64,000 bases of DNA. Source: Maribacter stanieri. Lineage in GTDB: Bacteria; Bacteroidota; Bacteroidia; Flavobacteriales; Flavobacteriaceae. The position numbers were made by a program, and so were the translations under genes. Below the pieces are notes generated by a model. The model worked only from the letters and a program-made list of their open reading frames with translations. It did not search any database and had not been told where the DNA came from. Shown one piece after another: positions 29,769-55,556 of this stretch (positions are counted from its first letter, which is position 1; every line of letters starts with the position of its first letter). The stretch covers positions 1 to 64,000 of the forward strand of contig NZ_FOYX01000002.1 in assembly GCF_900112245.1 (NCBI RefSeq), given 5' to 3'.

Positions 29769-29773
29769 TCAAA

Positions 29774-30997: not shown

Positions 30998-30999
30998 GC

Positions 31000-31743: not shown

Positions 31744-31745
31744 TT

Positions 31746-32966
31746 ATGAGACTATTAAATCTATTTAAAATCGCTTTCAAAGCTATAATTCTAAACAAAA
31801 CAAGAACTTTGTTGACCATGTTAGGGATTATCATTGGCGTAGCTTCGGTAATTGCCATGTTAGCTATAGGTGAAGGTTCTAAAGAGAGTATTAGAAGTAC
31901 CATTTCAAGTATGGGATCTAATATGATAACTATACGTCCTGGGGCAGATGATAGAGGTCCTGCAAGGGGTAGTGGTGGTGATGTACAAACTCTAACGCTT
32001 GCTAATTATGAAACGATAAAAAATCAATCTACACTTCTAAGTTATATAACACCTATTGTTAATGGCGGCGGACAAGTAATAAACGGTGCCAATAACTGGC
32101 CAAGTACCATCTATGGTGTTAACCCAGAATATTTGGAGATTAAAGTTGTGGGGCTTCAAAGCGGGAGTATGTTCACCGATGCCGAAGTAAAATCTGCCTC
32201 TAAAGTTGTTGTTCTTGGACAAACCGTTGTAGACAATGTATTTCCTGATGGTCAAGACCCTGTAGGTCAAATGATTCGTTTTGATAATATTCCGTTTAAA
32301 GTTATTGGAGTTTTAGAAGAAAAAGGGGAGAATACATTTGGGCAAGATCAAGATGATGTGGTTATCGCTCCTTACACCACGGTACAAAAACGAATTCTGG
32401 CTATTGATTATTTGAATCAGATCATGGCATCTGCCATTAGTGAAGATGATGCACCCGATGCTGTAATAGAGGTTACCGACATTTTACGTGCAGAACATAA
32501 GTTAATGTATACCGAAGATGATGATTTTACGGTTCGTTCCATGGAGGAGCTAATTTCAACATTTAGCTCTACCAGTGAAATGCTTACTATTCTTTTAGTT
32601 GCAGTTGCCAGTATTTCATTATTAATTGGTGGTATAGGCATTATGAATATCATGTACGTATCGGTAAAAGAGCGAACAAAAGAAATAGGACTTCGTATGG
32701 CTGTTGGCGGTAAAGGTTCTGATATTTTGATGCAATTTCTTATTGAAGCAATTTTAATAAGTATTACTGGTGGACTACTTGGTGTAATCTTAGGTTTAGG
32801 TGCTACCGTTTTTATAGAAAAGTTCTTACATTGGCCTACAAGTGTGGCATTGTATTCAATAATAATATCGTTTGCCGTTTGTGCGGTAACAGGTATTTTC
32901 TTTGGATGGTATCCTGCAAGAAAAGCATCGTCACTAGATCCTATCACAGCATTACGTTATGAATAA
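31746..32966 (+). CDS. MacB-type ABC transporter permease
   Basis: 406 residues. One transmembrane helix near residues 20-42, a periplasmic MacB_PCD domain (about 50-240), and three helices in the last 130 residues (LLVAVASISLLIGGIGIMNI, then two more), with the FtsX-family signature RTKEIGLRMAVGG. It acts as a mechanotransmission transporter that pushes periplasmic substrates through TolC (known for MacB); the substrate here is unknown. The LytS gene follows after 6 bases. Confidence 0.93.
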   Translation: MRLLNLFKIAFKAIILNKTRTLLTMLGIIIGVASVIAMLAIGEGSKESIRSTISSMGSNMITIRPGADDRGPARGSGGDVQTLTLANYETIKNQSTLLSYITPIVNGGGQVINGANNWPSTIYGVNPEYLEIKVVGLQSGSMFTDAEVKSASKVVVLGQTVVDNVFPDGQDPVGQMIRFDNIPFKVIGVLEEKGENTFGQDQDDVVIAPYTTVQKRILAIDYLNQIMASAISEDDAPDAVIEVTDILRAEHKLMYTEDDDFTVRSMEELISTFSSTSEMLTILLVAVASISLLIGGIGIMNIMYVSVKERTKEIGLRMAVGGKGSDILMQFLIEAILISITGGLLGVILGLGATVFIEKFLHWPTSVALYSIIISFAVCAVTGIFFGWYPARKASSLDPITALRYE

Positions 32967-32972
32967 ATAATT

Positions 32973-34007
32973 ATGTACAAGAATAAAAAAATAATCATAG
33001 TTCAGCATCTACTAATATGGCTGGTGCTGTTCAGCATACCTTTTGTTTTATCATACGGTCAAGAATTGGACAATAATAGATTAATTGCCCATTTCTTAAT
33101 ACCGATGTTGTTCTATGCAATCATATTTTATCTGAATTATTTCATACTAATAGACAAATTCCTTTTTTCGAATAAAACGGTAGTATTTATTCTTATCAAT
33201 TTAGTGATTATCGGTTTTTTTATTTTGATGAAAGAATTTATTGAGGATAATTATTTTGCCGAACTCATAAAGAAACGTCCGCCAGAGGATAATAGGGAAG
33301 GACCTCCATTTAAACTGTTCTTATATGTACAAATGTTATCCTATGCTGCTCCTTTACTTTTTTCAATAGCCATTAAGACCACTAAAAGATGGGTTAGAAC
33401 TGAAGCAGAGAAAAAGGAAGCGGATAACTTTAAATTACAAACGGAACTGCAACATCTTAGATATCAGCTACAACCCCATTTCTTTTTCAATTCTTTGAAT
33501 AATATTTATTCACTTGTAGATATATCTCCAGATAAAGCAAAATCTACTATTCATAGTTTAGGCAAGCTAATGCGCTATTTGCTATATGAAACAAGTACTG
33601 AATTAGTTCCTCTTTCAAAGGAAATTGAATTCATGAGAAAGTATATCGACTTAATGAATCTTCGTTTAACAGATAAAACAACCGTAGAATCTAGTTTTCC
33701 AATTAGTGAGCCACAGACTAAAATTGCTCCATTACTGTTCATCTCTCTAATTGAAAATGCTTTTAAACATGGGGTTTCTGCCAGTAAAGAGAGTGTAATT
33801 TCAATAGATATGATTACTAATGAAAATGTAGTGATTTTTAAAATCGAAAATTACAATTTCCCTAAACAAATAAATGATAAAAGTGGTTCTGGTATTGGTC
33901 TACCCAACCTTAAGAAAAGATTAGAGTTATTATACCCTGGCAAACATCTTTTTCAGCAAGAAATCAAGAACGGAATTTATTCTGTGTATTTAAAAATTGA
34001 AATTTAA
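32973..34007 (+). CDS. LytS-type sensor histidine kinase (locus A)
   Basis: 344 residues. Four transmembrane helices lie in the first 135 residues. A short extracytoplasmic or loop stretch reads KKRPPEDNREGPPFK (about 100-114). The histidine-kinase domain has phospho-acceptor His169 in LQPHFFFNSLNN, the N-box LIENAFKHG and the G-box GSGIGLPNLKKRL. It probably phosphorylates the LytTR regulator at 37036, from which it is separated by three surface-protein genes. It is co-directional with the MacAB-TolC genes and may sense their substrate or envelope stress (inference). Confidence 0.92.
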   Translation: MYKNKKIIIVQHLLIWLVLFSIPFVLSYGQELDNNRLIAHFLIPMLFYAIIFYLNYFILIDKFLFSNKTVVFILINLVIIGFFILMKEFIEDNYFAELIKKRPPEDNREGPPFKLFLYVQMLSYAAPLLFSIAIKTTKRWVRTEAEKKEADNFKLQTELQHLRYQLQPHFFFNSLNNIYSLVDISPDKAKSTIHSLGKLMRYLLYETSTELVPLSKEIEFMRKYIDLMNLRLTDKTTVESSFPISEPQTKIAPLLFISLIENAFKHGVSASKESVISIDMITNENVVIFKIENYNFPKQINDKSGSGIGLPNLKKRLELLYPGKHLFQQEIKNGIYSVYLKIEI

Positions 34008-34038
34008 AACACTGAAAAAGAATATAGAACCCCAATCA

Positions 34039-35367
34039 ATGAATCACAAAAAATATACATTTCTAATTTGCATTTTTCTTCTAATAAGTAATTCTATTTC
34101 CGCTCATGAAGGCGGACATGGAATTCCATCCAAACAATGGGAGTTAACTACAAATGAACTATTCAAGGCTCATTTTATTTCATATGAAAATGGTGAAGTT
34201 TGGCTTATGGACGGCAACCATAGTATTCAAACTTTTCAAATTACAGACTTTGCAGAAGCTGATCAAAAGTTTATTAAAACAAAAAATGAGTTCATTCATT
34301 CATTAAATAGCAGAACAGCTATTCAACTTGGTTCACAATCATTATCAATTTTTGATTGGGCGCTTATTGGTTTCGGTATTCTTCTTTTGTCTTTTTCTGT
34401 TTTTAAGCTGATAAAACAAAAAACAGTAGTGTACCTAACACATGGAGTACTTGGTTTAGGGGTTATTTTGATTGTATCCTGTAAAAATGTGAATTCTACT
34501 AAAACCAATAATTTAGAAGTACCAGAAAACAACGTTGCAGAGATGCGAGCTTTTTTTGAGAGATTTGAAGATGTCAGTACACATTCGGACGAAAACTATC
34601 TTTATGTTTCATCCAATGGCTTACCAGATCATGATATGATGGTTGGTATTACAAACTGGCAACAACAAGTGCCTATTAAGCAAAATTATACCGGTGACAA
34701 TAGTTGGGCAATACCTACGCATCCAAAAATGGCTGAACATCCGTTATCTACAAAAACCAATTTGTTAAAAGGAGCAATTGCTGTTGCGGTGAATGGAATA
34801 CCCATTTTCAACCCTTTAAATAACAGAGGCGAAGATGCCAATGCTATTGGAGAATTAGATAATTGGGGCGGACATTGTGGTCGTGCAGATGATTATCACT
34901 ACCATTTACCACCTCTACATTTGCAGGACCAAGTTGGTGCGTGGAATCCAGTTGCTTATGCTGTTGATGGTTTTCCGGTTTATGGAGAAACCACAGATAC
35001 ATTAGATGAATATTTAGGAAAAACAAATCCAGATGGTTCGTATCAATATCACACCATTAAAGAATATCCCTATTTTATTGCAGGTATGCGGGGCGAAGTA
35101 CAATTAGACCCAAAAACAAAAGCACCTGAAAACCAAGTGTATCCGCAACCTAGAACACAAGAATTAAGACCTGCGTTAAGACCGTTACGAGGTGCGGAGA
35201 TTATTGATTTTAAATTCTTAGGAGAGAACTCATATTCCTTAACCTACAGTTTAGATTCCAAAGAATATATTATCAATTATAATTGGGACAGCGAAGATAA
35301 TTATAGCTATCAATTTATAAATCCTGATGGTTCTTCAAAACTTGAAACCTATACCCCAAGAAAATGA
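34039..35367 (+). CDS. YHYH protein with SHD1-like N-terminus and transmembrane segments
   Basis: 442 residues from the ATG at 34039. An ATG at 33997 overlaps the kinase gene and would put 14 charged residues before the signal peptide, so it is less likely. The signal peptide ends near SISA; next is His-rich HEGGHG and a domain resembling SHD1 (LFKAHFISYENGEVWL, then ADQKF). A hydrophobic stretch spans about 95-145, ending in VSCKN. The C-terminal half is the YHYH domain, with the motif at 286-289 (DDYHYHLPPLHLQ) after GGHCGRAD. YHYH domains are of unknown function; the His cluster suggests metal binding. The next gene overlaps its stop by 4 bases. Confidence 0.8.
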   Translation: MNHKKYTFLICIFLLISNSISAHEGGHGIPSKQWELTTNELFKAHFISYENGEVWLMDGNHSIQTFQITDFAEADQKFIKTKNEFIHSLNSRTAIQLGSQSLSIFDWALIGFGILLLSFSVFKLIKQKTVVYLTHGVLGLGVILIVSCKNVNSTKTNNLEVPENNVAEMRAFFERFEDVSTHSDENYLYVSSNGLPDHDMMVGITNWQQQVPIKQNYTGDNSWAIPTHPKMAEHPLSTKTNLLKGAIAVAVNGIPIFNPLNNRGEDANAIGELDNWGGHCGRADDYHYHLPPLHLQDQVGAWNPVAYAVDGFPVYGETTDTLDEYLGKTNPDGSYQYHTIKEYPYFIAGMRGEVQLDPKTKAPENQVYPQPRTQELRPALRPLRGAEIIDFKFLGENSYSLTYSLDSKEYIINYNWDSEDNYSYQFINPDGSSKLETYTPRK

Positions 35368-35963
35368 AATATTCAAAATTTATAGTTCCCTTTCTTTTTA
35401 TTTGCTTATTGTCTTGTAAAAATAGTAACAGAGAAATAACAGAAGTAAATCATGATGACTTTAAAACAATTCATTCAGATTTTAAACTAACTAGTATCGC
35501 CATAAAGAATGGTGTTTTATTGGATGATTATAAATGTGAAGAGAAGGTAAATGATGTTGAAAATTCCATTCCTCTTTCATGGGAAAATGTTCCAGAAGGC
35601 AATAAATCGTTAGCAGTTGTCATGTATCATTATCCAAAGAAAAATGATAGAACAGAGATTAATTCATATCTGCTATTATGGGATATAAATCCAGAAACCA
35701 CAGGAATACCATATAAAATGGCTTCTAAAGGAAATTGGTTTATGGGAGTCAATAAAGATGGTACTGCAATATCATATACATCTCCATGTTCTCTTGGAAA
35801 AGGCAAGCATGAGTATACTCTAGCTCTTTATGCCCTTTCAGAAACGCCAAGTAGTTTACCAAAAAAACATAGTTTAAATGTAGATTACAATGTATTTATG
35901 AATGCATTGGCTACGGTGAAAATTATTGATAGAACAACATTAACCTTTATAGACTCAAATTAA
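35364..35963 (+). CDS. PEBP/YbhB-family lipoprotein
   Basis: 199 residues. A type II signal ends at the lipobox LLSC (Cys18). The body fits the YbhB/YbcL Raf-kinase-inhibitor-like (PEBP) fold: IPLSWENVPEGNKSLAVVMYH carries the phospholipid/phosphate-pocket signature, and SPCSLGKGKHEYTLALYAL the conserved C-terminal part. In bacteria the role is unclear, with ligand or inhibitor binding proposed. ATGA overlap with the YHYH gene shows translational coupling, so the two envelope proteins are probably made together. Confidence 0.88.
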   Translation: MKYSKFIVPFLFICLLSCKNSNREITEVNHDDFKTIHSDFKLTSIAIKNGVLLDDYKCEEKVNDVENSIPLSWENVPEGNKSLAVVMYHYPKKNDRTEINSYLLLWDINPETTGIPYKMASKGNWFMGVNKDGTAISYTSPCSLGKGKHEYTLALYALSETPSSLPKKHSLNVDYNVFMNALATVKIIDRTTLTFIDSN

Positions 35964-35976
35964 AAATAACAATTCA

Positions 35977-36993
35977 ATGATATACTTAAAGAACACTTTA
36001 CTACTCTTTGTTTTCGCTTCTTTAACGATGACAGCTTGTAAAAATGGTCAAAACAGTAAAAATACAACACCTGATAATTCAGAAACTTATACAGGATCAG
36101 CGTCTGTATCTCAAGGGTCAGCAACCGTTCTTACTGAAAACATTTTTGAGTGTGATAGGGGCAGAGAAGCACCAATTGGTACGTCTACTGCTACAGATGG
36201 CAGTGAATGGACGGTTCCTGCAGAAGTGAATTTTACCAATGAAAGTTTTCCTTTTGCATCAGATTTATTTAATCCGTGTACAAAGGTAGAATATACATCT
36301 GCAGATGAAGCATTAGCCGCTTTAGACGGAACAGATGTTATAGAAGTTGATACTGATGGTGAAATAATTACAGCATACATATTTGCCGATAACTATTTTG
36401 AAATGTACATCAATGGTATTGAAGTAGGCAAAGACAATGTTCCTTTTACTCAATTCAATTCTAATATCGTTCGCTTTAAGGTAAACACGCCTTTTACAAT
36501 AGCTATGAAATTGGTAGACTGGGAAGAAAATAGTGGTTTAGGATCAGAGGCAAATAGGGGGCAAGCGTTTCACCCAGGAGATGGTGGTATAGTCGCTGTT
36601 TTTAAAAATTCTAAAGATGATATAATTGCTACTACAAATTCTGCATGGAAAGCCCAAACATTTTACACAGCACCTTTAAAGGATTTGTCTTGTGCTTCTG
36701 AAGAAGGATCTTTAAGATTAAGTGATGCTTGCAGTACTGAAGATTCTAATGATGGTACTTCTTATTATGCTTTGCATTGGAAAACACCATCAAATTGGGA
36801 ATCGGCAGATTTTGATGATAGTGATTGGCCAAATGCAACCGAGTTTTCAAATAATACCATAGGTGTGGATAATAAACCTGCCTATACTAACTTTATTGAT
36901 GTGTTTGATAATAATGAAGAAGATGCTCAATTTATATGGTCAACAAATGTAATTTTAGATAACGAAGTATTAGTTAGATATACCGTAAAATAA
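35977..36993 (+). CDS. Lipoprotein of unknown function
   Basis: 338 residues. The lipobox MTAC gives lipid-modified Cys21, followed by a Ser/Thr/Asn-rich spacer. The mature part is acidic, rich in Asp, Asn and aromatic residues. The pattern FADNYFEMYINGIEVGKDN and FKVNTPFTIAMKLVDWEE resembles the galactose-binding-type beta-sandwich seen in carbohydrate-binding lectin-like domains. A later W-rich part reads ALHWKTPSNWESADFDDSDWPNATEF (first 20 residues form the core), typical of such folds. Several Cys (CDRG, NPC, LSC, DAC) could form disulphides. I do not recognise a named family. It lies between the PEBP gene and the LytTR regulator. Confidence 0.72.
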   Translation: MIYLKNTLLLFVFASLTMTACKNGQNSKNTTPDNSETYTGSASVSQGSATVLTENIFECDRGREAPIGTSTATDGSEWTVPAEVNFTNESFPFASDLFNPCTKVEYTSADEALAALDGTDVIEVDTDGEIITAYIFADNYFEMYINGIEVGKDNVPFTQFNSNIVRFKVNTPFTIAMKLVDWEENSGLGSEANRGQAFHPGDGGIVAVFKNSKDDIIATTNSAWKAQTFYTAPLKDLSCASEEGSLRLSDACSTEDSNDGTSYYALHWKTPSNWESADFDDSDWPNATEFSNNTIGVDNKPAYTNFIDVFDNNEEDAQFIWSTNVILDNEVLVRYTVK

Positions 36994-37035
36994 ATACAGA
37001 AAAATCTTTTAGACTATTAAAATTAGAAACCTGAT

Positions 37036-37773
37036 ATGGAAAGCATACAAATTACTTGCATGATTGTTGACGATGAGCCTATGGCTGTTAACCTAGTAGA
37101 AAGTTATGTAGAGAAAACTCCGTATTTAACGTTGAAAAAGAAATGCAATAGCGCCATAGAAGCCATGCAGTTTTTAAATACTGAAAAAGTAGACCTATTA
37201 TTTCTGGATATTCAAATGCCGGATTTAACTGGAATAGAATTTTCTAAAATGCTTCCAAAACATTCTAGAGTAATTTTTACAACTGCTTTTGACCAATATG
37301 CATTAGAGGGTTTTAAAGTGGAGGCTTTAGATTATTTGCTAAAACCGTTTGATTATGCCGAGTTCTTAACCGCTGCCAACAAAGCCTTAGAATGGTTCTC
37401 TTTGGTAAAAGGCAATACACAACCTTCTATAGTATCTGATGAAAAGGAATTCCTTTTTGTAAAATCAGAATACAAACAATTGCGCATTAAATTGGCTGAC
37501 GTCCAATATTTTGAAGGATTGAAGGACTACATAAAAATATGGATAAAAGATAACCCTAAGCCAATTCTAACTTTAATGAGTTTAAAGAGTTTAGAAGAAG
37601 AATTACCCAACTCTAATTTTATGCGTGTACACCGCTCTTTTATTGTATCTCTAAAGTATGTTGAAGTAATTGAGCGTAGTCAAATCATTATCAACAAACA
37701 ACGCATCACCGTTTCTGAACAATACAAGTCCCGGTTTTTAGAATATATAAACGATAATTCATTGAATTCTTAG
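37036..37773 (+). CDS. LytTR-family response regulator (locus A)
   Basis: 245 residues. The receiver domain has the acidic pair Asp12-Asp13, phospho-acceptor Asp58 in LLFLDIQMP and the conserved Lys in YLLKPFDY. The C-terminal LytTR DNA-binding domain (about 140-240) has FMRVHRSFIVSLKYV. It binds direct repeats upstream of target genes. It probably pairs with the LytS kinase at 32973. The two lie in one co-directional gene run but are not adjacent. Confidence 0.92.
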   Translation: MESIQITCMIVDDEPMAVNLVESYVEKTPYLTLKKKCNSAIEAMQFLNTEKVDLLFLDIQMPDLTGIEFSKMLPKHSRVIFTTAFDQYALEGFKVEALDYLLKPFDYAEFLTAANKALEWFSLVKGNTQPSIVSDEKEFLFVKSEYKQLRIKLADVQYFEGLKDYIKIWIKDNPKPILTLMSLKSLEEELPNSNFMRVHRSFIVSLKYVEVIERSQIIINKQRITVSEQYKSRFLEYINDNSLNS

Positions 37774-46985: not shown

Positions 46986-47660
46986 TTAAAACAATTCTTC
47001 TTTTACTTGGTCATAATACGAATCGCTTACAGGTATAATAACATCAGAAAGAAGTAAGTCTCTACCTTTTAATCCCGTTACGCTATTCTTATTAATAATA
47101 TAAGATCGATGAACTCTCATGAACATAGAACTCGGCAGTTCTTGTTCTAAAGCTTTTAATCGCTGATTGCTAATTATTTTCTTATCACCTAAATGGAAGG
47201 TAACATACTCACTATCACTAACTACATAAAGAATATCTTCATATTTTACTTTATGTAGGTCATAGCCAGATTTTATAGTAATGGTATCGGTCTTTTCAAT
47301 GATTTTACCCGGTTTCACTTTATTTACGGCAGTAACAAAACGCTCAAACGTTATTGGTTTTAATAGGTAATCAACTGCATTTAACTCATAGCCTTCTAAG
47401 GCGTATTGTGAGTATGCTGTGGTAAAAATTATCTTAGTATTGGAATCAACCATTTTGGCAAAATCTGTTCCTTTAATTTCGGGCATTTGTATATCCAAGA
47501 ACAAAACGTCTACGTCATGTTCTTTCATTAATTGTAAAGCCTCTAACGGATTCTCAGCCTGGCCTACCAAATTTAAATAATCTAACTTTTTTATATAAGT
47601 TATTAGTAGGGCACGTGCCAATTCTTCGTCATCTACGACTATACAATTTATACTATTCAT
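46986..47660 (-). CDS. LytTR-family response regulator (locus B)
   Basis: 224 residues. The receiver domain has the acidic pair Asp10-Asp11, phospho-acceptor Asp56 in VLFLDIQMP and Lys in YLLKPITF. The LytTR DNA-binding domain (about 125-224) has FMRVHRSYIINKNSV. It starts inside the end of the kinase gene (8-base overlap), so the pair is translationally coupled. Its target is probably the divergent surface-protein operon starting at 48938 (inference from position). Confidence 0.93.
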   Translation of the reverse strand: MNSINCIVVDDEELARALLITYIKKLDYLNLVGQAENPLEALQLMKEHDVDVLFLDIQMPEIKGTDFAKMVDSNTKIIFTTAYSQYALEGYELNAVDYLLKPITFERFVTAVNKVKPGKIIEKTDTITIKSGYDLHKVKYEDILYVVSDSEYVTFHLGDKKIISNQRLKALEQELPSSMFMRVHRSYIINKNSVTGLKGRDLLLSDVIIPVSDSYYDQVKEELF

Positions 47661-48747
47661 TCAATTGTAATTTTAAATTCACTTTAAAAGCTTGCGAGGT
47701 CTCGTTTATTACTAATTCATGTCGATTTGGATATAGAATTGCCAAACGTTTTTTTACATTTTCAATTCCAATACCACCAACATCATCCTTTACGACTTTA
47801 AATTCTGGCTTGCTATTCTCTAGTTCAAAATCAATACTATTTTCGGTAGCATTAATTTTTAGATTAATAAATGTGCCCGTTACTTTTTCAATATTACTAT
47901 GCTTTAAGGCATTTTCCAAAAAAGGAATCAATAACATGGGTACAATTTGAATATTCTGGTTTTCTATAGAAAAAGAAGTCGTTATAGGATATGTTTTACT
48001 GCTTTTAAGACAAAACAATTTTATATAATTTTCAATATAGTCTATCTCTTTATAAAGCGGTACAATCTCTTGCTCACACTCATATAATACATACCTAAGC
48101 ATATCAGACAAATAACTAATACTCTGTTGTGTTCTTCCAGAATCTATTGCAGACAATGCATATATGTTATTTAAGGCATTGAATAAAAAATGTGGATTAA
48201 TTTGTGATTTCAACAGCTTCAATTCTGTTTGTAAAGCTTCATTTTTATTGATAACTATTTCCTCTTCTTTTCGTTGAGCAAATAGAAATATTTCAACAAG
48301 CGTGGCTATCACATAAGCAATTGCAATCAATAACAGATTAATGAAAAAACGTGATGGTGGCCTACGGTTAACATCTAATGGCGGTCCGTCTTCAAATCTA
48401 GGTCCGGCCGCTGGTCCGCCAGCTCCCGGTCCCGGTCCAAATCTAGGTCCTGGCACCTGGTCTACGTTTTCTAACCCAAGTATCTGGTTTGGTAAAACGT
48501 TAGTCAACACTAAGGTGACTACAAAAACTGTGATCAAAGAGACAATAGTAAATGCTATATACTTTTTCTTTAATAATAATTGAGGAACCGTATAGTAGAT
48601 TAATATGGCAATAACTAAAATCTGAAATACGAGAGCCATTCCGTTTTCCACTGCAAATTGAATATCACTGCCACTAAAAATCCAAGCAGTTGACCAAATC
48701 AGTAACCATAGCGCTACGTGAAATATAAAATTCTTATGTCTGTTCAT
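47653..48747 (-). CDS. LytS-type sensor histidine kinase with Pro/Gly-rich loop (locus B)
   Basis: 364 residues. About four transmembrane helices lie in the first 155 residues. Between the third and fourth lies a 34-residue loop (about 98-131) made almost wholly of Pro, Gly, Arg, Phe and Ala (PGPRFGPGPGAGGPAAG). The kinase domain has phospho-acceptor His186 in INPHFLFNALNN, N-box FLENALKHS and a Gly-rich GGIGIENVKKRL. It phosphorylates the overlapping LytTR regulator. The loop is probably extracytoplasmic by helix count and may be a sensing element. The start at 48747 is 190 bases from the divergent EF-hand gene. Confidence 0.92.
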   Translation of the reverse strand: MNRHKNFIFHVALWLLIWSTAWIFSGSDIQFAVENGMALVFQILVIAILIYYTVPQLLLKKKYIAFTIVSLITVFVVTLVLTNVLPNQILGLENVDQVPGPRFGPGPGAGGPAAGPRFEDGPPLDVNRRPPSRFFINLLLIAIAYVIATLVEIFLFAQRKEEEIVINKNEALQTELKLLKSQINPHFLFNALNNIYALSAIDSGRTQQSISYLSDMLRYVLYECEQEIVPLYKEIDYIENYIKLFCLKSSKTYPITTSFSIENQNIQIVPMLLIPFLENALKHSNIEKVTGTFINLKINATENSIDFELENSKPEFKVVKDDVGGIGIENVKKRLAILYPNRHELVINETSQAFKVNLKLQLNE

Positions 48748-48937
48748 GTTGCAAATAAAAGGAATAATAATTCAAACAAACCCCGTAAACAAGGCTATAA
48801 ACCGGTGAAACTAAAGTGTTCGCTGTCTAAAATATGTCTTTCACTTAAAAGTAAACGGCAAACACTTAATGCGCTCATATTACATTGAAGTTTCTCACAT
48901 CTTTGTTCTGGAATATTAATTATTAAAATTAAAACAT

Positions 48938-49219
48938 ATGAAACGTATTACATTAAAAACAGGATTATTATTTGCCATGTTAGTTGCATTTGGAACAGTA
49001 GCAGTTAACGCACAGTCTAAAGGCGAAAAAAAAGAGCCCCCAACATTTACTGAGCTTTTAAAGCAAATGGATAAGGACGAAGATGGTCAACTTTCTAAAG
49101 ATGAAGTAAAAGGACCTTTAAAAGATGATTTCGATAAAATTGATACTGATGAAGATGGTTTTCTTACTGAAGAAGAATTAGAAAAAGCTCCTAAACCAAA
49201 AGGAAGACCTAGAAACTAA
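48938..49219 (+). CDS. Secreted EF-hand protein
   Basis: 93 residues with a signal peptide (about 1-25, ending VNAQ). Two canonical 12-residue EF-hand loops are complete: 45-56 (DKDEDGQLSKDE) and 69-80 (DTDEDGFLTEEE), each with Asp at 1, 3 and 5, Gly at 6 and Glu at 12, so calcium binding is very likely. The tail is Lys/Pro/Arg-rich. It is the first gene of the divergent operon and is followed by the CotH-like gene after 27 bases. A periplasmic calcium sensor or buffer is the simplest role. Confidence 0.9.
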   Translation: MKRITLKTGLLFAMLVAFGTVAVNAQSKGEKKEPPTFTELLKQMDKDEDGQLSKDEVKGPLKDDFDKIDTDEDGFLTEEELEKAPKPKGRPRN

Positions 49220-49246
49220 TTCAAATTAACCCTTAAAATTTTACAC

Positions 49247-50710
49247 ATGAGTTATAAAGATATCAAGTCTGTTTTTCCGATTGAAAAGATCTTATTTTTC
49301 ATATTCATTTCTGTTTTTATTGCCTGTAGTGATGATGACACAGTAACAAGTACTGACGAGGATGATGAAGAAATAGTTGAAGAGGAAGAAGTTAGTACTA
49401 CTGTTGACGATACCGATTTTGAAGCTACAGATTGGACCACGGCAACACACAGTAAAGATGCCGACCCAGATTTTGACGAGGTATTTGAAGATAATGCGGT
49501 AAAGCGCCTTGATATCGTTATAACCGAGGATCGTTGGGAAAGTATGTTAGATAACATGACATCTCTTTATGGTTCCTTTGGCGGATCTAGCCAAGGAGGC
49601 GGACCAGTGGGCACTACATCAACTGATGAGGATCCTATATTTGTTCCTGCAGAAGTATTCTATGAAGGTATAGAATGGTATAGAGTTGGTGTTCGATTTA
49701 AAGGTAATTCTAGCTTACAATCTACTTGGCAAGCAGGAAACTTAAAACTTTCCTTTAAACTAGATTTTGATGAGTTTGAAGATGATTACCCCCAAATTGA
49801 TAATCAACGTTTTTATGGATTTAAAAAATTAAGCCTTAAAAACAACTTTGACGATAAATCAATGCTACGTGAAAAAGTAGCTGCAGATGTATTTCGTAAT
49901 GCCGGTTTAGCAGTTTCTAACACTGCATTTTATACGGTTTATGTTGATCATGGAGATGGTCCTATTTATTTTGGACTATATACCCTTGTAGAAGAGGTTG
50001 ATGATACCGTAATAGATGAGCAGTTTTCTGACGATGATGGAAATTTGTATAAGCCAGATGGTGATGCCGCTACTTTTGCCGCAGGTACTTATGATGAAGA
50101 TGAATATGTTAAAAAGACAAATGAAGATGATGCCGATTTTTCTGATGTAGAAAGTCTTTTAAATATTCTACATGATGCGTCAAGAACAACAGATGCTGCA
50201 GCATGGAGAACAAATTTAGATGCAACACTTGATACAGATGTGTTCTTGAAATACTTGGCAACCAATACCGTTATACAAAATTGGGATACTTATGGTAGAA
50301 TGTCTCACAACTACTATCTATATAATAATCCCGATAACAGTAAGTTAACGTGGATACCATGGGACAATAATGAAGCTCTACAAACAGGTAAACAACAAGG
50401 CTCTGCAGCGTTAGATTTCTCAAATATTACAGCATCTCAATGGCCATTAATATCATACTTGTATACTGATGATGTTTACCAAGCTAAGTATGATGCCTAC
50501 GTTCAAGAAGTTATTGAAGGTCCTTTTAACGAGGCAACGGTACAAGCATTATATGCTAGCTATTCTGCGCTAATTGAACCTTATGCAACTTCTGAAACTG
50601 AAGGGTATACCTTTTTAAACTCTAGTGCAGATTTTCAGAATGCGGTGAATGAATTAAATGCCCATGCCACAAGTAGAACTGCGGCAGTAAATAGTTACCT
50701 AAATAGATAA
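49247..50710 (+). CDS. CotH-kinase-family lipoprotein
   Basis: 487 residues. The lipobox FIAC gives Cys27, followed by a long acidic Asp/Glu/Thr/Ser spacer. The CotH domain (about 75-400) shows GVRFKGNSS, KLSLKNNFDDKSMLREKVA and YFGLYTLVEEVDD, then a NLYKPDGDAATF segment and WIPWDNNEAL. CotH is an atypical protein kinase fold first known in spore coats; Bacteroidetes homologues are secreted and uncharacterised. A Gly-rich SSQGGGPVG stretch interrupts the N-terminal part. Its neighbours are the calcium-binding EF-hand protein and YHYH lipoproteins, so it may phosphorylate surface partners (speculative). Confidence 0.88.
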   Translation: MSYKDIKSVFPIEKILFFIFISVFIACSDDDTVTSTDEDDEEIVEEEEVSTTVDDTDFEATDWTTATHSKDADPDFDEVFEDNAVKRLDIVITEDRWESMLDNMTSLYGSFGGSSQGGGPVGTTSTDEDPIFVPAEVFYEGIEWYRVGVRFKGNSSLQSTWQAGNLKLSFKLDFDEFEDDYPQIDNQRFYGFKKLSLKNNFDDKSMLREKVAADVFRNAGLAVSNTAFYTVYVDHGDGPIYFGLYTLVEEVDDTVIDEQFSDDDGNLYKPDGDAATFAAGTYDEDEYVKKTNEDDADFSDVESLLNILHDASRTTDAAAWRTNLDATLDTDVFLKYLATNTVIQNWDTYGRMSHNYYLYNNPDNSKLTWIPWDNNEALQTGKQQGSAALDFSNITASQWPLISYLYTDDVYQAKYDAYVQEVIEGPFNEATVQALYASYSALIEPYATSETEGYTFLNSSADFQNAVNELNAHATSRTAAVNSYLNR

Positions 50711-50804
50711 TAATTGTTGTTGATGTTAGCTCAAAGCTTCGTGAGAAATCATGGAGCTTTATTTAAACACAAAAGTCTTACAACGGATTACAAAATAGCT
50801 TTCA

Positions 50805-51557
50805 ATGGTATTGTTCAGAAAGGTTAGAAGTAAATTATTAAGGCTAGAAAAATTTAAAACATACTTTATTTACGCGCTTGGCGAAATAGCGTTAATAGTA
50901 GTAGGTCTATTGATTGCCTGGAAAATCAACAACTTAAACGAAATTAAAAAAAATAGGGTTGTAGAGCTTAAAATTTATAAAAGTTTAAGTCAAGAGCTGG
51001 ATACAAATTTAATTGTATTGGATAGTGCTATTGTAGATTATACAAAGAGCATACAAATGCTTCAAAACACAATTAACTATCTAGGTGTACAGCCAAAAGA
51101 ATTAACGCAAGACGCCAAAAAGTTAATTGTTAATCTCAACTATGAGAAAACCATTGTAAGAAACGAGGCTATTAATTCCATAAACGCTACTAACAAATTT
51201 GAATTTATTGAAAGTGACTCTCTTAAATATTTGATTGCTGCTTACCCTAACGAGTTAGATAGCTTTAATAATCAACAAATTAAAATTGAAAATATTATTA
51301 CCAATCGGTTAAAACCGGTAATAGAAAAATATATTTCGTTATTAGAAATTTTACCTGAAAATAGTTACAACTACAAGCGAGTTAAAAACTATGGTAATCA
51401 ATCTAATTATCCAGAATTATTGGTTAGTAGAGAATATCAAAACGGTGTTATAGATAGACTTTTAAGAACCAAAGATCAATTATCGATTGCCAAAAATTTA
51501 AGGTTCAAAACTGAGACTATTGCAACAAAATTAGATCAAGAATTACATAGACCTTAA
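50805..51557 (+). CDS. DUF6090-like membrane protein
   Basis: 250 residues. The start FRKVRSKLLRLEKFKTYFIY leads into one transmembrane helix (about 26-43, ALGEIALIVVGLLIAWKI) and NNLNE, the DUF6090 signature common in Bacteroidetes. The remaining 200 residues are helical and charged, and probably periplasmic. Function unknown. It lies in the same direction as the CotH-like and YHYH genes (gaps of 94 and 32 bases). Confidence 0.8.
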   Translation: MVLFRKVRSKLLRLEKFKTYFIYALGEIALIVVGLLIAWKINNLNEIKKNRVVELKIYKSLSQELDTNLIVLDSAIVDYTKSIQMLQNTINYLGVQPKELTQDAKKLIVNLNYEKTIVRNEAINSINATNKFEFIESDSLKYLIAAYPNELDSFNNQQIKIENIITNRLKPVIEKYISLLEILPENSYNYKRVKNYGNQSNYPELLVSREYQNGVIDRLLRTKDQLSIAKNLRFKTETIATKLDQELHRP

Positions 51558-51589
51558 TCAAATTAAATAATAATCTAAAACTCAATATC

Positions 51590-52639
51590 ATGATAGAAAA
51601 AAATAAATACTTTGTTTTAACCTGCTTCCTATTGGCTTTTACAGCTATTGGTTTTATTAGCTGTAGTAGCGATGATTCTTCAACTTCAGATGAGGCTGTA
51701 ATTGAAGAGGATGACACAGAAACTGACAATGACGCTACCGATGAAGATACAAATACAGTAAGTGTTGACGCTTCTTATTTTTATACGACTGACGGTTCGG
51801 TCACTATCACAACGGTGCCGTGTACTTTATCAGATGGCACATCTACAGATTGTTATCAGATAGTTACGACCAGTCTACCTGGAGATCACGAAATGGGACC
51901 ATGGTGCCCTGGTAATATTGAAGATGATGCTACAGCAGGTGGTATTTGGCTTGAAGGTGGAGAAGTATATGATGTAGATGGTGCTTTCGTTGAAAATATG
52001 GCAACATTCTATAATGATCCAAATTGGATGATGTACGATGCAAACGGAGATATTTATATTACAGATACCCAAGAAGATTGTGAAAATGCCGCCAACCCTG
52101 ATGTTGGTGAAGAATACGAAAATTTTTGTGTTGAATGTCTTCCTTCCTACATTACAGATTTAACACAAACTTGGACAATTCCTATCACTCCCGTTGCGCA
52201 AGATTCTCCTGTGCTATTTACTACCGCAGGTGGTGGACCAGGTGGACCAGGAATAACTACAGCTCCTTCAACACGTGGAGTAGCATTAAACGGTATTGAG
52301 TTTTCTGCGCCTGCTCCCGTAGACAACATTCTGGGTGCCTATACTTTAGCTCCATTTGATGATGCTGGCGGACATATAAATGTTCACCAAGGGTATCATT
52401 ACCACGCAGCAACAGGATTTAGTACTAAAATAGCACAAGATGACGGGCATGCTGCCTTAATTGGCTATGCTCTGGACGGATATGGAATTTATGAATTGGC
52501 AGATAGTAGTGGTGTAGAGGCTACAGACTTAGATGAATTAAGAGGACATTCTGATGATACTAGAGGTTACCATTACCATGTAGATGCAGCTGGTAATAAC
52601 AACTTTATTGATGGATTAAAAGGTGCTTACGTAAACTAA
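51590..52639 (+). CDS. YHYH lipoprotein (first of locus B)
   Basis: 349 residues. The lipobox FISC gives Cys25, followed by a Ser/Asp/Glu/Thr-rich spacer of about 40 residues. The YHYH domain carries two copies of the motif, at 269-272 (HQGYHYHAATG) and 327-330 (RGYHYHVDAAG), with GGHINVH just before the first. Eight or so Cys in the middle (TVPC, TDC, GPWCPG, EDC, CVEC) may form disulphides or bind metal. A Gly/Pro-rich loop (GGGPGGPG) precedes the domain. The function of the family is unknown. The next gene begins 6 bases downstream. Confidence 0.85.
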   Translation: MIEKNKYFVLTCFLLAFTAIGFISCSSDDSSTSDEAVIEEDDTETDNDATDEDTNTVSVDASYFYTTDGSVTITTVPCTLSDGTSTDCYQIVTTSLPGDHEMGPWCPGNIEDDATAGGIWLEGGEVYDVDGAFVENMATFYNDPNWMMYDANGDIYITDTQEDCENAANPDVGEEYENFCVECLPSYITDLTQTWTIPITPVAQDSPVLFTTAGGGPGGPGITTAPSTRGVALNGIEFSAPAPVDNILGAYTLAPFDDAGGHINVHQGYHYHAATGFSTKIAQDDGHAALIGYALDGYGIYELADSSGVEATDLDELRGHSDDTRGYHYHVDAAGNNNFIDGLKGAYVN

Positions 52640-52645
52640 ATAGAT

Positions 52646-53278
52646 ATGAAAAAGTATATCTTATTATTGATTTTTTTATGGACAACTATGGGCAGTTTTG
52701 CCCATAGTCCCGATGCGTCAACCATTGTTTTAGCAGAGCAAAAGAACAACGTATGGGTTTTACAAATCAACGCATCGTTGACTGCTTTTCAACAAGAGGT
52801 TAGAACTCATTTTGCTGAGACCCCTTATAAAACACCAGAGGAGTTTCAAGAAATGGTTATATCCCATATTAAAAATAATCTTCAGTTTACTTTTAATAAT
52901 GGCGAGCAAATTATTTTAGGTAAAGGCGTGGTTAAACTAGGGCATGAAACTAAAGTTGTATTTGAGGTTTTGAATTTACCGACAGAGATAACTTCCGTAA
53001 ATGTTTCTAACAAAGTATTTAGCGATATCAATAGAAATCAAAGTACCCTGATGATATTTAAAGAAGGCTTTGCTAAAGATCATTTTACCCTAGATAAAAC
53101 CAATGACCATACTATTACTTTGGTGGTAAAGGACAATAAGTTCATTGAAAAAACCGAACAAAGTGCAGGCGTATCTTCTTCTTTAATCATCTTAGGTTTA
53201 ATAGCAAGTATTTGTTTAGGTCTATTGATTAAAAATATACTGCTATTGAGAGAAAAATCGGTGAGCGAAAATATATAA
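52646..53278 (+). CDS. Periplasmic protein with C-terminal membrane anchor, unknown function
   Basis: 210 residues. A signal peptide (about 1-19) is followed by AHSPDAS, giving an N-terminal His after cleavage that could join metal binding. Residues 25-165 look beta-rich with no family I can name. A single transmembrane helix (about 175-196, SSLIILGLIASICLGLLIKN) anchors the C-terminus, leaving a short cytoplasmic tail. Remotely, the AHxxD start and layout recall the extracytoplasmic domain fused to HupE/UreJ metal transporters; this is weak. It sits between two YHYH lipoprotein genes and probably belongs to their system. Confidence 0.7.
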   Translation: MKKYILLLIFLWTTMGSFAHSPDASTIVLAEQKNNVWVLQINASLTAFQQEVRTHFAETPYKTPEEFQEMVISHIKNNLQFTFNNGEQIILGKGVVKLGHETKVVFEVLNLPTEITSVNVSNKVFSDINRNQSTLMIFKEGFAKDHFTLDKTNDHTITLVVKDNKFIEKTEQSAGVSSSLIILGLIASICLGLLIKNILLLREKSVSENI

Positions 53279-53401
53279 TCTTAATCTAAAACCAGATTCA
53301 CTTAATAGAACGCGGAGTTCACTGATTTTTGAAATCTGGTATATACTTAGTTATTAGTATTGTAGTGTTAAATCGCTGAAATCAAGCTCAAATTAAATAT
53401 T

Positions 53402-54196
53402 ATGAAAAAAAATAGTCTAAAAAGAATTCCCCAAGTGTCATTTGTTTTGGCATTATCATTCATCACATTAATTGCATGTAGTAGCGATAGTATTGATGAT
53501 GACATTACAGAAGAGATTGCCAGTACTGATGACTCTGAAGATGAATCTGAAGAAGTTGTAACAGAATTACATCCTGCATATGCTGCCTTTAATTCAGATG
53601 CGGTAACTGTATATTTAGATGGTTCTGAAGTTGTAATTGAAACAACAGGTTTACCAAATCATGAAACCGTTTATTGGGGAGAAGGTAACGCCTTATACAG
53701 AGAAGAATCTGACGTCGCTACGACACCTAGCATTATGTCTAGTAATAATAATGCGACTACCATTCGTGTAGATGCTACTCCTAATTTAACTGGTAGTACT
53801 GTTGAAACAGAATTGAATACTATTGGTATCGCTGTAAGTGGCTCTTCTATTTTTAATGATCAAGAAGGTGGTGGTGCTTTAGACCAAGCTGCGGCTAGTT
53901 TAGATTGGACAGGGGCTCATATTGGTCCAGGTGTTTATCACTATCACTTAGAGCCAAAAGCGTTCTCGGATGATGATGAAAATTTAGTAGGTGTATTGTT
54001 AGACGGTGTTTTTCTTTATGGCCGTAAATGTAATTCAACAGGAGATTATCCTTCAGATCTTGATGCTTCTGGCGGACATACCACTACTACTCAATACACT
54101 GATGGTGAAGAAGAATATCATTACCATATTATAAATGAAGTTTATTCAACAACAGGATCATACTTAGCATTTGCAGGTCCTTACCAAGGATATTAA
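53402..54196 (+). CDS. YHYH lipoprotein (second of locus B)
   Basis: 264 residues. The lipobox LIAC gives Cys26, followed by an acidic spacer. It again has two YHYH motifs, at 179-182 (GVYHYHLEP) and 239-242 (EEYHYHIIN), with a conserved GGHTTTT between them. It is shorter than the first YHYH lipoprotein and lacks its Cys-rich middle, so the two are diverged paralogues with different partners or ligands. The MORN-variant lipoprotein gene starts 2 bases after the stop. Confidence 0.87.
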   Translation: MKKNSLKRIPQVSFVLALSFITLIACSSDSIDDDITEEIASTDDSEDESEEVVTELHPAYAAFNSDAVTVYLDGSEVVIETTGLPNHETVYWGEGNALYREESDVATTPSIMSSNNNATTIRVDATPNLTGSTVETELNTIGIAVSGSSIFNDQEGGGALDQAAASLDWTGAHIGPGVYHYHLEPKAFSDDDENLVGVLLDGVFLYGRKCNSTGDYPSDLDASGGHTTTTQYTDGEEEYHYHIINEVYSTTGSYLAFAGPYQGY

Positions 54197-54198
54197 TA

Positions 54199-54825
54199 AT
54201 GAGAATAGTTCACTTCCATATCATATGTTTTATACTGATTTTTCAAGTTGGTTGTAAGAATATAACAGAGCCCAAAACTTTGGTGGATAAACCAATAGAA
54301 ATTAAGCAAGAAACTAAATTTAAAGAAGAGTTGACATTAAATCAATTGGAAGGAACTTGGTATTATAAAAACTCACCTTATGATGGTTATTCAATAGCCT
54401 TACATGAAAATGGTATTTTGGCAGAAAAGGTGGGTTTTATAAAAGGTAAAAGAGAAGGTGAAGCCCAAAAATGGTCTCAAGCCGGAGTTTTACGAGTGGC
54501 ATATCACTATAAAAATAACCGACTTGAAGGTTCTTATAAAAGCTGGTGGGAAAATGGTCAATTAGCGCAAGATGCTAATTACGTTAATGGTAATATGAAC
54601 GGGGTTGAAAAGAAATGGTATCCAGACGGGCAATTGGCAAAAGAAAGACAATTGTTAAATGGAAAGGAAGAGGGTTTACAAAAAGCATGGTTACAAAATG
54701 GAACCTTGTATGTAAATTACGAAGCCAAAAACGGACGTATTTTTGGGTTACGAAGAGCCAATTCTTGCTATCAATTAGAAGATGAAGTTGTTATTAGGGA
54801 TGAAATCGCGAAAAGAGATGAATAA
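54199..54825 (+). CDS. MORN-variant (YwqK-like) lipoprotein
   Basis: 208 residues. The lipobox VGC gives Cys19. The mature part has at least five repeats of the MORN-variant type (for example GFIKGKREGEAQKWSQAGVL, YKSWWENGQLAQDANYVNGN and KKWYPDGQLAKERQLLNGK), often annotated as YwqK antitoxin-like, though no toxin is present and the lipoprotein signal argues against an antitoxin. It is probably a surface or periplasmic scaffold. The SCO gene overlaps its stop by 8 bases. Confidence 0.83.
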   Translation: MRIVHFHIICFILIFQVGCKNITEPKTLVDKPIEIKQETKFKEELTLNQLEGTWYYKNSPYDGYSIALHENGILAEKVGFIKGKREGEAQKWSQAGVLRVAYHYKNNRLEGSYKSWWENGQLAQDANYVNGNMNGVEKKWYPDGQLAKERQLLNGKEEGLQKAWLQNGTLYVNYEAKNGRIFGLRRANSCYQLEDEVVIRDEIAKRDE

Positions 54826-55492
54826 GTCAATTGTAATAATACTGTTTTTTATAATTTTTGCTAGTTGTAAAGAAGCAGTGAAAAAGGAAAATATTCAGAT
54901 AACTGAAACCAGTAGGGTAGAGCACTTGCCATATTACAATGGTGAATCGTTTACACCTCATTGGATAACTCCAAATACTGAAGAAGAAAAACAATTTCAC
55001 AAAATTCCAGATTTTAAATTGGTGGATCAATTAGGAGATACATTGACGCAAAAATCATTTAATAATCAAATTTATATTACGGACTTCTTTTTTACGAGTT
55101 GTCCAGGTATTTGTTTGAAGATGACCAATAATATGACGAAGGTGCAAGAAGCCTTTTTAGATCATCCGGAAGTAGCTATTCTTTCACATTCCGTTACTCC
55201 ATCCATAGATTCGGTTTCTGTTCTTAAAACATATGCTGAAAAGAACGGAGTTATAGATTCTAAATGGCACTTGGTTACCGGTGACAAAACTGAAATTTAC
55301 AACTTAGGTAGAAACGAATATTTTGTAGAAAATGATTTAGGTATTCCAAAGGATATCAATGACTTTTTACACACAGAAAACTTCTTATTAATTGATAAGA
55401 ACAAACACATAAGAGGTATTTATAACGGATTAAATAGAGCGTCAATAGCACAATTAATAACCGATGTAAATGCCTTATTAGAAGAAAGTTGA
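54818..55492 (+). CDS. SCO-family copper chaperone lipoprotein
   Basis: 224 residues from the ATG at 54818, whose hydrophobic signal and lipobox FASC (Cys17) support this start over the upstream ATG at 54782. The thioredoxin-like SCO fold has the copper-binding CPGIC (Cys95 and Cys99) and the later conserved His in FLHTENFLLID. SCO proteins deliver copper to the CuA site of cytochrome oxidase or act as thiol oxidoreductases; no oxidase genes are in this window. Translational coupling to the MORN lipoprotein and the YHYH genes suggests that it serves this surface system. A strong terminator follows. Confidence 0.9.
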   Translation: MNKSIVIILFFIIFASCKEAVKKENIQITETSRVEHLPYYNGESFTPHWITPNTEEEKQFHKIPDFKLVDQLGDTLTQKSFNNQIYITDFFFTSCPGICLKMTNNMTKVQEAFLDHPEVAILSHSVTPSIDSVSVLKTYAEKNGVIDSKWHLVTGDKTEIYNLGRNEYFVENDLGIPKDINDFLHTENFLLIDKNKHIRGIYNGLNRASIAQLITDVNALLEES

Positions 55493-55513: not shown

Positions 55514-55556
55514 TTAAAAAAAAAGCCCGTAAACATAAGTTTACGGGCTTTTTAAA
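55514..55556. terminator. Bidirectional intrinsic terminator
   Basis: A perfect stem (AGCCCGTAAAC and its complement) with an ATAA loop, flanked by A9 and T5. It ends both the SCO operon and the convergent DJ-1 gene. Confidence 0.88.

What the first reader, a model, noticed from the sequence alone, without database searches (positions are those of the whole stretch)
46986..55492. Two-component-controlled surface locus: LytTR/LytS facing EF-hand, CotH, DUF6090, YHYH, anchored unknown, YHYH, MORN and SCO genes
Eight co-directional genes all encode exported or membrane proteins, and a coupled LytS/LytTR pair faces them head to head. A calcium-binding EF-hand protein, an atypical secreted kinase fold, two double-YHYH lipoproteins and a copper-chaperone fold in one run do not fit any pathway I can name. 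The last three genes are translationally coupled or nearly so. A copper- or calcium-dependent surface assembly, possibly with protein phosphorylation by the CotH-like protein, is the working idea (inference).
Basis: partly seen in the sequence, partly recalled or inferred. Interest (0 to 1): 0.7.

Follow-up and report, generated by a model that had tools for sequence, protein, structure and literature searches.

The report
Surface metal-handling locus with CotH kinase
A marine bacterium carries a conserved set of eight envelope-protein genes, switched by its own regulator, that most likely handles copper or a similar metal at the cell surface and pairs a secreted-type kinase with a protein family of unknown function.

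Summary
In detail: eight co-directional genes for exported or membrane proteins (EF-hand, CotH, DUF6090-like, YHYH, DUF6702-like, YHYH, MORN, SCO) face an overlapping LytS/LytTR pair in a Maribacter genome. Of 80 CotH-orthologue loci, 53 keep the order YHYH-MORN-SCO within the fetched stretch. One relative fuses CotH and YHYH in one protein; 27 ORFs in 25 of the 80 loci join EF-hand and YHYH. The "anchored unknown" is DUF6702-like, begins with histidine once mature, and its model matches zinc-binding ZrgA and, more weakly, a Cu-bound Ang-1 domain; DUF6702 is a published metal binder. SCO keeps its ligand motifs in 64 of 64 homologues. In the own phylum, 23 of 44 YHYH clusters lie within 6 kb of an SCO, MbnP or multicopper-oxidase gene, far above chance. 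A 21-bp-periodic repeat, probably the LytTR site, precedes operon genes in 10 of 12 LytTR-type loci and in none of 45 loci with a sigma/anti-sigma/c6 regulator instead. Best reading: a metal-handling, probably copper, surface system. Metal binding by YHYH, loading by SCO and phosphorylation by CotH are inferred, not shown.

The parts
46986..47660 (-). LytTR response regulator
   Evidence: PF00072 6e-23, PF04397 9e-20
47653..48747 (-). LytS-type membrane histidine kinase, overlapping the regulator gene by 8 bases
   Evidence: PF06580 1.5e-23
48842..48868 (+). Putative LytTR site: direct repeat CACTTA at 21-bp period, 96 bases before the EF-hand gene
   Evidence: only exact match of the strict pattern in the own genome; conserved in LytTR-type loci
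48938..49219 (+). Secreted EF-hand protein with two EF-hand loops
   Evidence: PF13405 8e-10; loops at residues 45 and 69
49247..50710 (+). CotH-family secreted-type kinase, lipoprotein with an acidic export-type signal (C-SDDD)
   Evidence: PF08757 5e-71; Asp347 and Asp373 align with the QNFD and IPWD aspartates of solved CotH 5jd9
50805..51557 (+). DUF6090-like membrane protein
   Evidence: PF19578 20.6 bits, below cut-off; follows CotH directly in 25 of 80 loci
51590..52639 (+). YHYH lipoprotein 1
   Evidence: PF14240 6e-11
52646..53278 (+). DUF6702-like protein: signal peptide, mature N-terminal His, beta-sandwich, C-terminal membrane helix
   Evidence: PF20420 0.0011, below cut-off; His1, His36, His81 invariant in 14; Foldseek to ZrgA 6e-6 and Cu-bound Ang-1 9.8e-5
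53299..53325 (+). Second putative LytTR site, before YHYH-MORN-SCO
   Evidence: (2 mismatches)
53402..54196 (+). YHYH lipoprotein 2
   Evidence: PF14240 1e-8; seven invariant His and an invariant lipid-anchor Cys in 46 aligned sequences
54199..54825 (+). MORN_2 lipoprotein
   Evidence: PF07661 1e-13
54782..55492 (+). SCO1/SenC copper-chaperone-family lipoprotein
   Evidence: PF02630 2e-22; CxxxC and His aligned with solved SCO proteins
55520..55553 (.). Palindromic terminator-like sequence after SCO
   Evidence: listed on the minus strand; sequence
28437..37773 (+). Related second locus: OEP, HlyD, ABC, MacB, LytS-type kinase, YHYH (33997-35367), PEBP-like (35364-35963), 338-aa protein (35977-36993), LytTR regulator
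   Evidence: relatives of its YHYH and 338-aa proteins are fused to CotH in L239

Best explanation
It is a LytS/LytTR-controlled envelope locus that handles a transition metal, most likely copper, at the cell surface. The YHYH lipoproteins are the central effectors: His-rich proteins probably displayed outside. The SCO lipoprotein, probably on the periplasmic face, prepares them by delivering copper or keeping thiols reduced. The DUF6702-like protein, anchored by its tail, captures metal with its N-terminal histidine. CotH, probably on the surface with intact catalytic residues, acts together with YHYH and EF-hand partners and may phosphorylate them. Shown here by computation: gene content, recurring modules, protein fusions, metal-ligand motifs, alternative regulators, the putative LytTR site. 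Inferred: the metal, loading by SCO, surface display, phosphorylation, and the purpose (acquisition or surface redox use rather than detoxification).
For: YHYH-MORN-SCO in that order in 53 of 80 CotH-orthologue loci. CotH+YHYH+338-aa-like fusion in L239. EF-hand+YHYH: 27 ORFs in 25 of 80 loci by blastp, 5 of 5 scanned confirmed by Pfam. In 28 YHYH-bearing genomes of the own phylum, 44 YHYH clusters: SCO within 6 kb of 13 (0.34 expected), MbnP 7 (0.21), multicopper oxidase 3 (0.16); one of the 13 is the window itself, and 10 of the 13 show no CotH in the fetched stretch. MbnP (PF20243 above cut-off) with CCP_MauG/MbnH-like genes beside YHYH. SCO CxxxC plus His motif in 64 of 64. Mature N-terminal His in 18 of 18 DUF6702-like proteins. 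Model matches Zn-bound ZrgA and Cu-bound Ang-1. DUF6702 and Ang-1 bind Ni, Co or Cu in print (PMC12537917). Sigma/anti-sigma/c6 triplet in 45 of 80 loci, window-type LytTR (at least 55% identity) in 12, both in 0; 11 of 20 c6-type proteins match PF13801 Heavy-metal resistance at E 0.01. LytTR-type repeat before operon genes in 10 of 12 LytTR-type and 0 of 45 sigma-type loci; 44 hits at the 21-bp period against 6-26 at ten other spacings.
Against: No metal binding was measured, and the YHYH model has no match in solved structures (best E 0.78), so its site is unknown. 21 of 44 YHYH clusters have none of the three copper genes within 6 kb, among them the window's own third YHYH gene. In 20 gammaproteobacterial stretches blastp found no SCO or MbnP relative; two have HupE/UreJ neighbours, one an Ang-like neighbour. 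The published DUF6702 prefers Ni over Cu and ZrgA binds Zn, so the metal may not be copper. The window protein misses the DUF6702 cut-off, and the Foldseek TM-scores are modest (0.44-0.46 by query for ZrgA, 0.38 for Ang-1). PMC3621798 (2013, passages) said no data then linked close MbnP relatives to copper. The repeat also precedes CotH in 3 of 23 loci with neither regulator. A surface kinase would need ATP outside the cell. CotH and YHYH can occur apart.
Confidence: 0.5

Rival explanations
1. YHYH is a zinc-dependent surface hydrolase, as proposed for phage tail YHYH domains; SCO acts only as a thiol-disulfide helper, and the locus remodels envelope or surface glycans.
For: PMC7824862 (passage) predicts a Zn site and a hydrolase role. 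YHYH is fused to a sulfatase in L207, and a sulfatase-family cluster occurs in 8 of 80 loci. The YH2 model matches phage YHYH proteins (5.3e-8).
Against: Recurring neighbours of YHYH in the own phylum include SCO, MbnP and multicopper oxidase, copper-associated families rather than hydrolase partners; no catalytic residues are known.
Confidence: 0.2
2. A calcium- and phosphate-centred surface or biofilm system: CotH phosphorylates secreted proteins, EF-hands bind calcium, and the metal genes are incidental.
For: EF-hand gene directly before CotH in 40 of 80 loci. VTC and DUF4956 genes in 12 of 80; CotH, a polyphosphate polymerase and DUF4956 accompany Pel clusters in Gram-positives (PMC7112168, passages). 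CotH catalytic residues intact.
Against: Does not explain SCO, the N-terminal-His protein or Metal_resist-type proteins; YHYH-MORN-SCO occurs without CotH nearby.
Confidence: 0.15
3. A metal-stress or efflux locus: the proteins bind excess metal and protect the envelope.
For: Metal_resist/LTXXQ-type proteins in the sigma-type loci; MacAB-TolC-like genes in the related window locus and next to CotH in Cocleimonas.
Against: No metal P-type ATPase or CusA-type pump among the ten genes scanned; MacAB systems are not specific for metals (recalled).
Confidence: 0.12

Closest known systems
DUF6702 metal sequesterases and Ang-1 anglerase domains (PMC12537917)
   Same: Signal peptide, mature N-terminal His, predicted beta-sandwich; Foldseek match to Cu-bound Ang-1 (E 9.8e-5)
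   Different: Window protein misses the DUF6702 cut-off, has its own C-terminal helix and no permease domain, and sits with YHYH and SCO; the paper names M1 peptidases and HAD proteins among DUF6702 neighbours
SCO1/SenC copper chaperones
   Same: Family profile, CxxxC and His ligands
   Different: Partner is a YHYH-MORN pair; no oxidase gene identified among the ten genes
MbnP/MbnH pair
   Same: Both sit beside YHYH genes in several loci of the own phylum; NCBIfam calls MbnP copper-binding
   Different: Not in this locus; the own genome's MbnP lies on another contig; matches in those loci are below the NCBIfam cut-offs
Bacillus CotH spore-coat kinase
   Same: Pfam family and both catalytic aspartates
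   Different: Here a predicted lipoprotein linked or fused to YHYH and EF-hand proteins, in a group not known to form spores (recalled)
CotH, polyphosphate polymerase and DUF4956 genes beside Pel clusters (PMC7112168)
   Same: CotH with VTC and DUF4956 in 12 of 80 loci
   Different: No VTC or DUF4956 gene in the window locus; added YHYH, SCO and regulators
Phage tail YHYH proteins
   Same: Sequence family; predicted model matches phage YHYH models
   Different: Bacterial lipoproteins with SCO partners instead of tail fusions

Membership tests
SCO1/SenC | Family profile above cut-off | tested here: met
   80 bits vs 22.8
SCO1/SenC | CxxxC and downstream His copper ligands | tested here: met
   Aligned to 4hde and 1xzo; motif in 64 of 64 homologues over 180 aa
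SCO1/SenC | Copper binding or delivery | not testable with these tools
   needs purified protein
CotH kinase | Family profile above cut-off | tested here: met
   240 bits vs 23.8
CotH kinase | Catalytic Asp228 and Asp251 equivalents | tested here: met
   Asp347 and Asp373 align with QNFD and IPWD of 5jd9, whose spacing of 23 fits 228/251; first motif in 80 of 83, both in 79 of 83 homologues
CotH kinase | Kinase activity | not testable with these tools
   needs assay
DUF6702 | Pfam gathering score | tested here: not met
   19.4 vs 24 bits, E 0.0011
DUF6702 | Mature N-terminal His | tested here: met
   18 of 18 by sequence pattern, invariant in 14; cleavage itself not shown
DUF6702 | Tri-histidine metal site | tested here: inconclusive
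ZrgA/Ang-1-like fold | Metal-binding beta-sandwich fold | tested here: met
   Foldseek ZrgA 6e-6 (TM by target 0.57-0.62); Ang-1 9.8e-5 with weaker TM 0.43
YHYH (PF14240) | Profile above cut-off, two HxH motifs | tested here: met
   43.2 and 35.7 bits vs 25
DUF6090 | Pfam gathering score | tested here: not met
   20.6 vs 23.5 bits
LytS/LytTR two-component system | Histidine-kinase, receiver and LytTR profiles | tested here: met
LytS/LytTR two-component system | Direct-repeat binding site at the target | tested here: inconclusive
   conserved repeat; binding not tested
Methanobactin-type MbnP/MbnH locus | MbnP in the locus | tested here: not met
   one MbnP match in the genome, on contig C9

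The most novel reading that the evidence does not exclude
A previously undescribed copper-dependent surface system in which SCO metallates His-rich YHYH proteins and a secreted-type CotH kinase phosphorylates them or their EF-hand partners, shared by Bacteroidota and Gammaproteobacteria and wired in each host to one of two interchangeable regulators.
Probability: 0.25. Interest if true: 0.85.

Novelty: new variant of a known kind. Interest (0 to 1): 0.62.

Why it matters
YHYH is a widespread protein family without an established function, seen in phages, diatom transcripts and bacteria (passages read). Placing it beside copper proteins gives it a testable role, and could do the same for a secreted-type CotH kinase outside spore formation. 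The two alternative regulators, each with its own sensor parts, offer a direct way to find out what the locus senses.

Tried and rejected
Lanmodulin-like lanthanide binding by the EF-hand protein: an NCBIfam hit existed (27.8 bits vs a 135 cut-off); not accepted because the score is far below the cut-off and the loops look like ordinary EF-hands (recalled: lanmodulin has proline at the second loop position). Sigma-70 promoter scan: no excess over shuffles (32 vs mean 40.1). YHYH against solved structures: best sequence E 0.081 and best fold E 0.78. The first LytTR pattern had a spacer one base too short and gave 0 matches in the window; the spacing was right. A fixed eight-gene block was rejected: modules come apart. 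I first took G002 and G023 to have lost YHYH-MORN-SCO, because the fetched 16-kb stretch ended before it; searches show it further downstream, so that claim was dropped. A methanobactin-type locus was rejected. Literature searches for YHYH with CotH (0 papers), 'YHYH domain', YHYH and CotH with Bacteroidetes, lipoprotein and kinase showed, in the titles, abstract starts and passages I looked at, no paper linking YHYH to copper or describing this locus; the library holds open-licence papers only.

Limits of counts: gene labels come from a simple longest-ORF caller and blastp, so starts and small genes can be wrong; 'YH2' means any YHYH protein of the broad cluster that is not closest to YH1. 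Related species are not independent. The 80 loci are the best 80 of 463 relatives found, reach at most 10 kb to each side, and 9 are on short stretches. Chance values use rounded genome sizes. The lipobox scan is a crude regex (CotH 54 of 85, YHYH 100 of 110, SCO 60 of 65, MORN 53 of 59 proteins matched). The one search test used the 28 YHYH-bearing genomes only.
Full report
Observation. The LytS-type kinase and LytTR regulator overlap by 8 bases on the minus strand and face eight plus-strand genes with gaps of 27, 94, 32, 6, 123, 2 and -44 nt. A palindromic terminator-like sequence follows at 55520-55553. By their N-termini, CotH, both YHYH proteins, MORN and SCO look like lipoproteins, the EF-hand and DUF6702-like proteins have cleavable-type signal peptides, and the DUF6090-like protein has a membrane helix (sequence). 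Two labels are weaker than written: the DUF6090 and DUF6702 matches are below Pfam's cut-offs.

Where it occurs. Named relatives place the genome in Maribacter. A CotH match was found in 44 of 149 relatives at E 0.001, distant ones included. In the genus, 16 of 36 genomes have a CotH-family gene and 23 of 36 a YHYH gene: both in 14, YHYH only in 9, CotH only in 2, neither in 11. The best 80 of 463 relatives from named genomes are mostly Flavobacteriaceae by title but include Cocleimonas, a gammaproteobacterium, with about 75% identical CotH. This suggests horizontal transfer; no tree was built.

Neighbourhood. Within the stretches fetched, 60 of the 80 CotH loci hold a YHYH gene of the broad YH2 cluster, 58 SCO, 56 an EF-hand gene, 53 MORN, and 53 the order YHYH-MORN-SCO; the YH1-DUF6702 pair occurs in 11, CotH-DUF6090 in 25, and VTC with DUF4956 in 12. 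14 of 80 showed none of trio, YHYH, sigma triplet, LytTR pair or VTC. G026 keeps EF-hand, YHYH, MORN and SCO beside a CotH remnant with stops. In G002 and G023 about 10 kb of opposite-strand genes lie between the CotH part and YHYH-MORN-SCO; the SCO and MORN genes were seen in both and the YHYH frame in both. So the locus is a set of modules that tend to stay together.

Protein fusions. In L239, from the gammaproteobacterial sample, one 1084-aa frame holds a domain like the window's 338-aa protein (29% identity), a YHYH domain 56% identical to the window's third YHYH protein (33997-35367), and a CotH domain 68% identical to the window's, followed by a YH1-like gene. By blastp, 29 ORFs in the searched sets join EF-hand and YHYH, 27 of them in 25 of the 80 CotH loci; 5 of 5 scanned were confirmed by Pfam, and so was a sulfatase-YHYH fusion. 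These fusions are the strongest evidence that CotH, EF-hand and YHYH work together, and they tie the window's second locus (28437-37773) to the first. In Cocleimonas the two kinds of genes lie in one run.

Metal evidence. SCO aligns with solved SCO proteins at CxxxC and His; 64 of 64 homologues over 180 aa show the motif. The DUF6702-like protein begins with His after the predicted signal peptide in 18 of 18 relatives; His1, His36 and His81 are invariant in 14. Its model (pLDDT 87.8) matches Zn-bound ZrgA (6e-6; TM 0.44 by query, 0.57 by target) and Cu-bound Ang-1 (9.8e-5; TM 0.38 and 0.43). PMC12537917 (sections 7 and 9 and part 1 of 8 read) reports a DUF6702 protein as a metal sequesterase with a modelled three-His site, tightest for Ni, then Cu and Co, and Ang-1 as Cu-binding. 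YH2 relatives keep seven invariant His (46 sequences). The YH2 model (pLDDT 79.3) has no match in solved structures but matches phage YHYH models.

YHYH and copper genes. 28 of 247 sampled genomes of the own phylum have YHYH, in 44 clusters. SCO lies within 6 kb of 13 (0.34 expected), MbnP of 7 (0.21), multicopper oxidase of 3 (0.16); any of these in 23 clusters from 20 genomes; 21 clusters have none. Of the 13 with SCO, 3 (window, G258, G304) have CotH in the fetched stretch and 10 do not. MbnP passes its Pfam cut-off in the three MbnP proteins scanned against Pfam; the partner di-haem genes pass CCP_MauG where scanned against Pfam but stay below the NCBIfam MbnH cut-off, and the NCBIfam MbnP matches are below theirs. 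A HupE/UreJ gene and two multicopper oxidases beside YHYH were confirmed as well. PMC3621798 (passages) cautioned in 2013 that close MbnP relatives had no data linking them to copper. In 20 stretches from 14 of the 16 YHYH-bearing genomes of the gammaproteobacterial sample, two have HupE/UreJ neighbours whose proteins begin with His after the signal peptide, one has an Ang-like neighbour, and blastp finds no SCO or MbnP relative: the link is weaker there.

Regulation. 45 of 80 CotH loci carry an ECF sigma, a small anti-sigma-like and a c6 protein; 12 carry a window-type LytTR pair; none carries both. 11 of 20 c6-type proteins match Heavy-metal resistance PF13801 and 6 match LTXXQ at E 0.01; the one seen with its cut-offs was below them. 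In LytTR-type loci a direct repeat (C/T)AC(A/T)(G/T)A at 21-bp period lies about 95 bases before the first gene. It stands before operon genes in 10 of 12 LytTR-type loci, 0 of 45 sigma-type loci and 3 of 23 others; one sigma-type locus, L082, has two copies before unrelated genes. Of the two misses, L054 has a copy inside a probably miscalled start and L078 none in the stretch searched. Across the 80 loci the 21-bp period gives 44 hits, ten other spacings 6 to 26. The strict pattern has one exact match in the whole genome, at 48842, and a two-mismatch copy at 53299 before YHYH-MORN-SCO; at up to two mismatches the genome total (36) is close to the reversed control (30), so only position and conservation support that second site.

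Topology. PMC5080379 (passages) shows that an acidic signal after the lipid-anchored Cys sends Bacteroidetes lipoproteins to the surface (consensus SDDFE for Flavobacterium johnsoniae). By a crude scan, two or more acidic residues at +2 to +6 occur in 38 of 54 CotH, 49 of 100 YHYH, 12 of 60 SCO and 5 of 53 MORN lipoproteins, and a basic residue in 55 of 60 SCO and 28 of 100 YHYH. This suggests CotH and many YHYH outside and SCO inside; it is an inference.

CotH. PMC7821199 (passages) names Asp228 and Asp251 as needed for activity in Bacillus CotH. The window's Asp347 and Asp373 align with the two aspartates of 5jd9 with that spacing. Activity, donor and substrate are untested. CotH beside polyphosphate-polymerase and DUF4956 genes is known from Pel clusters (PMC7112168, passages).

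Verdict. The finding is real, coherent and conserved. The metal reading rests on several lines, with copper the likeliest metal; the kinase's role and the purpose of the system remain open.

Noticed in passing
window 28437-37773: A second YHYH locus: MacAB-TolC-like genes, LytS-type kinase, YHYH protein with a likely mature N-terminal His, PEBP-like lipoprotein, 338-aa lipoprotein and LytTR regulator.
   Followed up: partly
L239:3518-6772: Single gammaproteobacterial polypeptide joining a 338-aa-like domain, YHYH and CotH.
   Followed up: yes
L207:5375-7846: Sulfatase fused to YHYH in one protein.
   Followed up: partly
L211 (own genome C7:89521-89548): Another near-exact copy of the putative LytTR repeat, starting about 92 bases before an ATG of a gene that reads by eye as an exported protein with Gly-rich stretches.
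   Followed up: no
80 CotH loci, e.g. L064:17403-18455: A BNR-repeat protein gene follows SCO directly in 29 of 80 loci but not in the window.
   Followed up: no
L051 (G026:C3): CotH reduced to a remnant with stops while EF-hand, YHYH, MORN and SCO remain.
   Followed up: partly
L240, L241 (G002, G023): About 10 kb of opposite-strand genes inserted between the CotH part and YHYH-MORN-SCO.
   Followed up: partly
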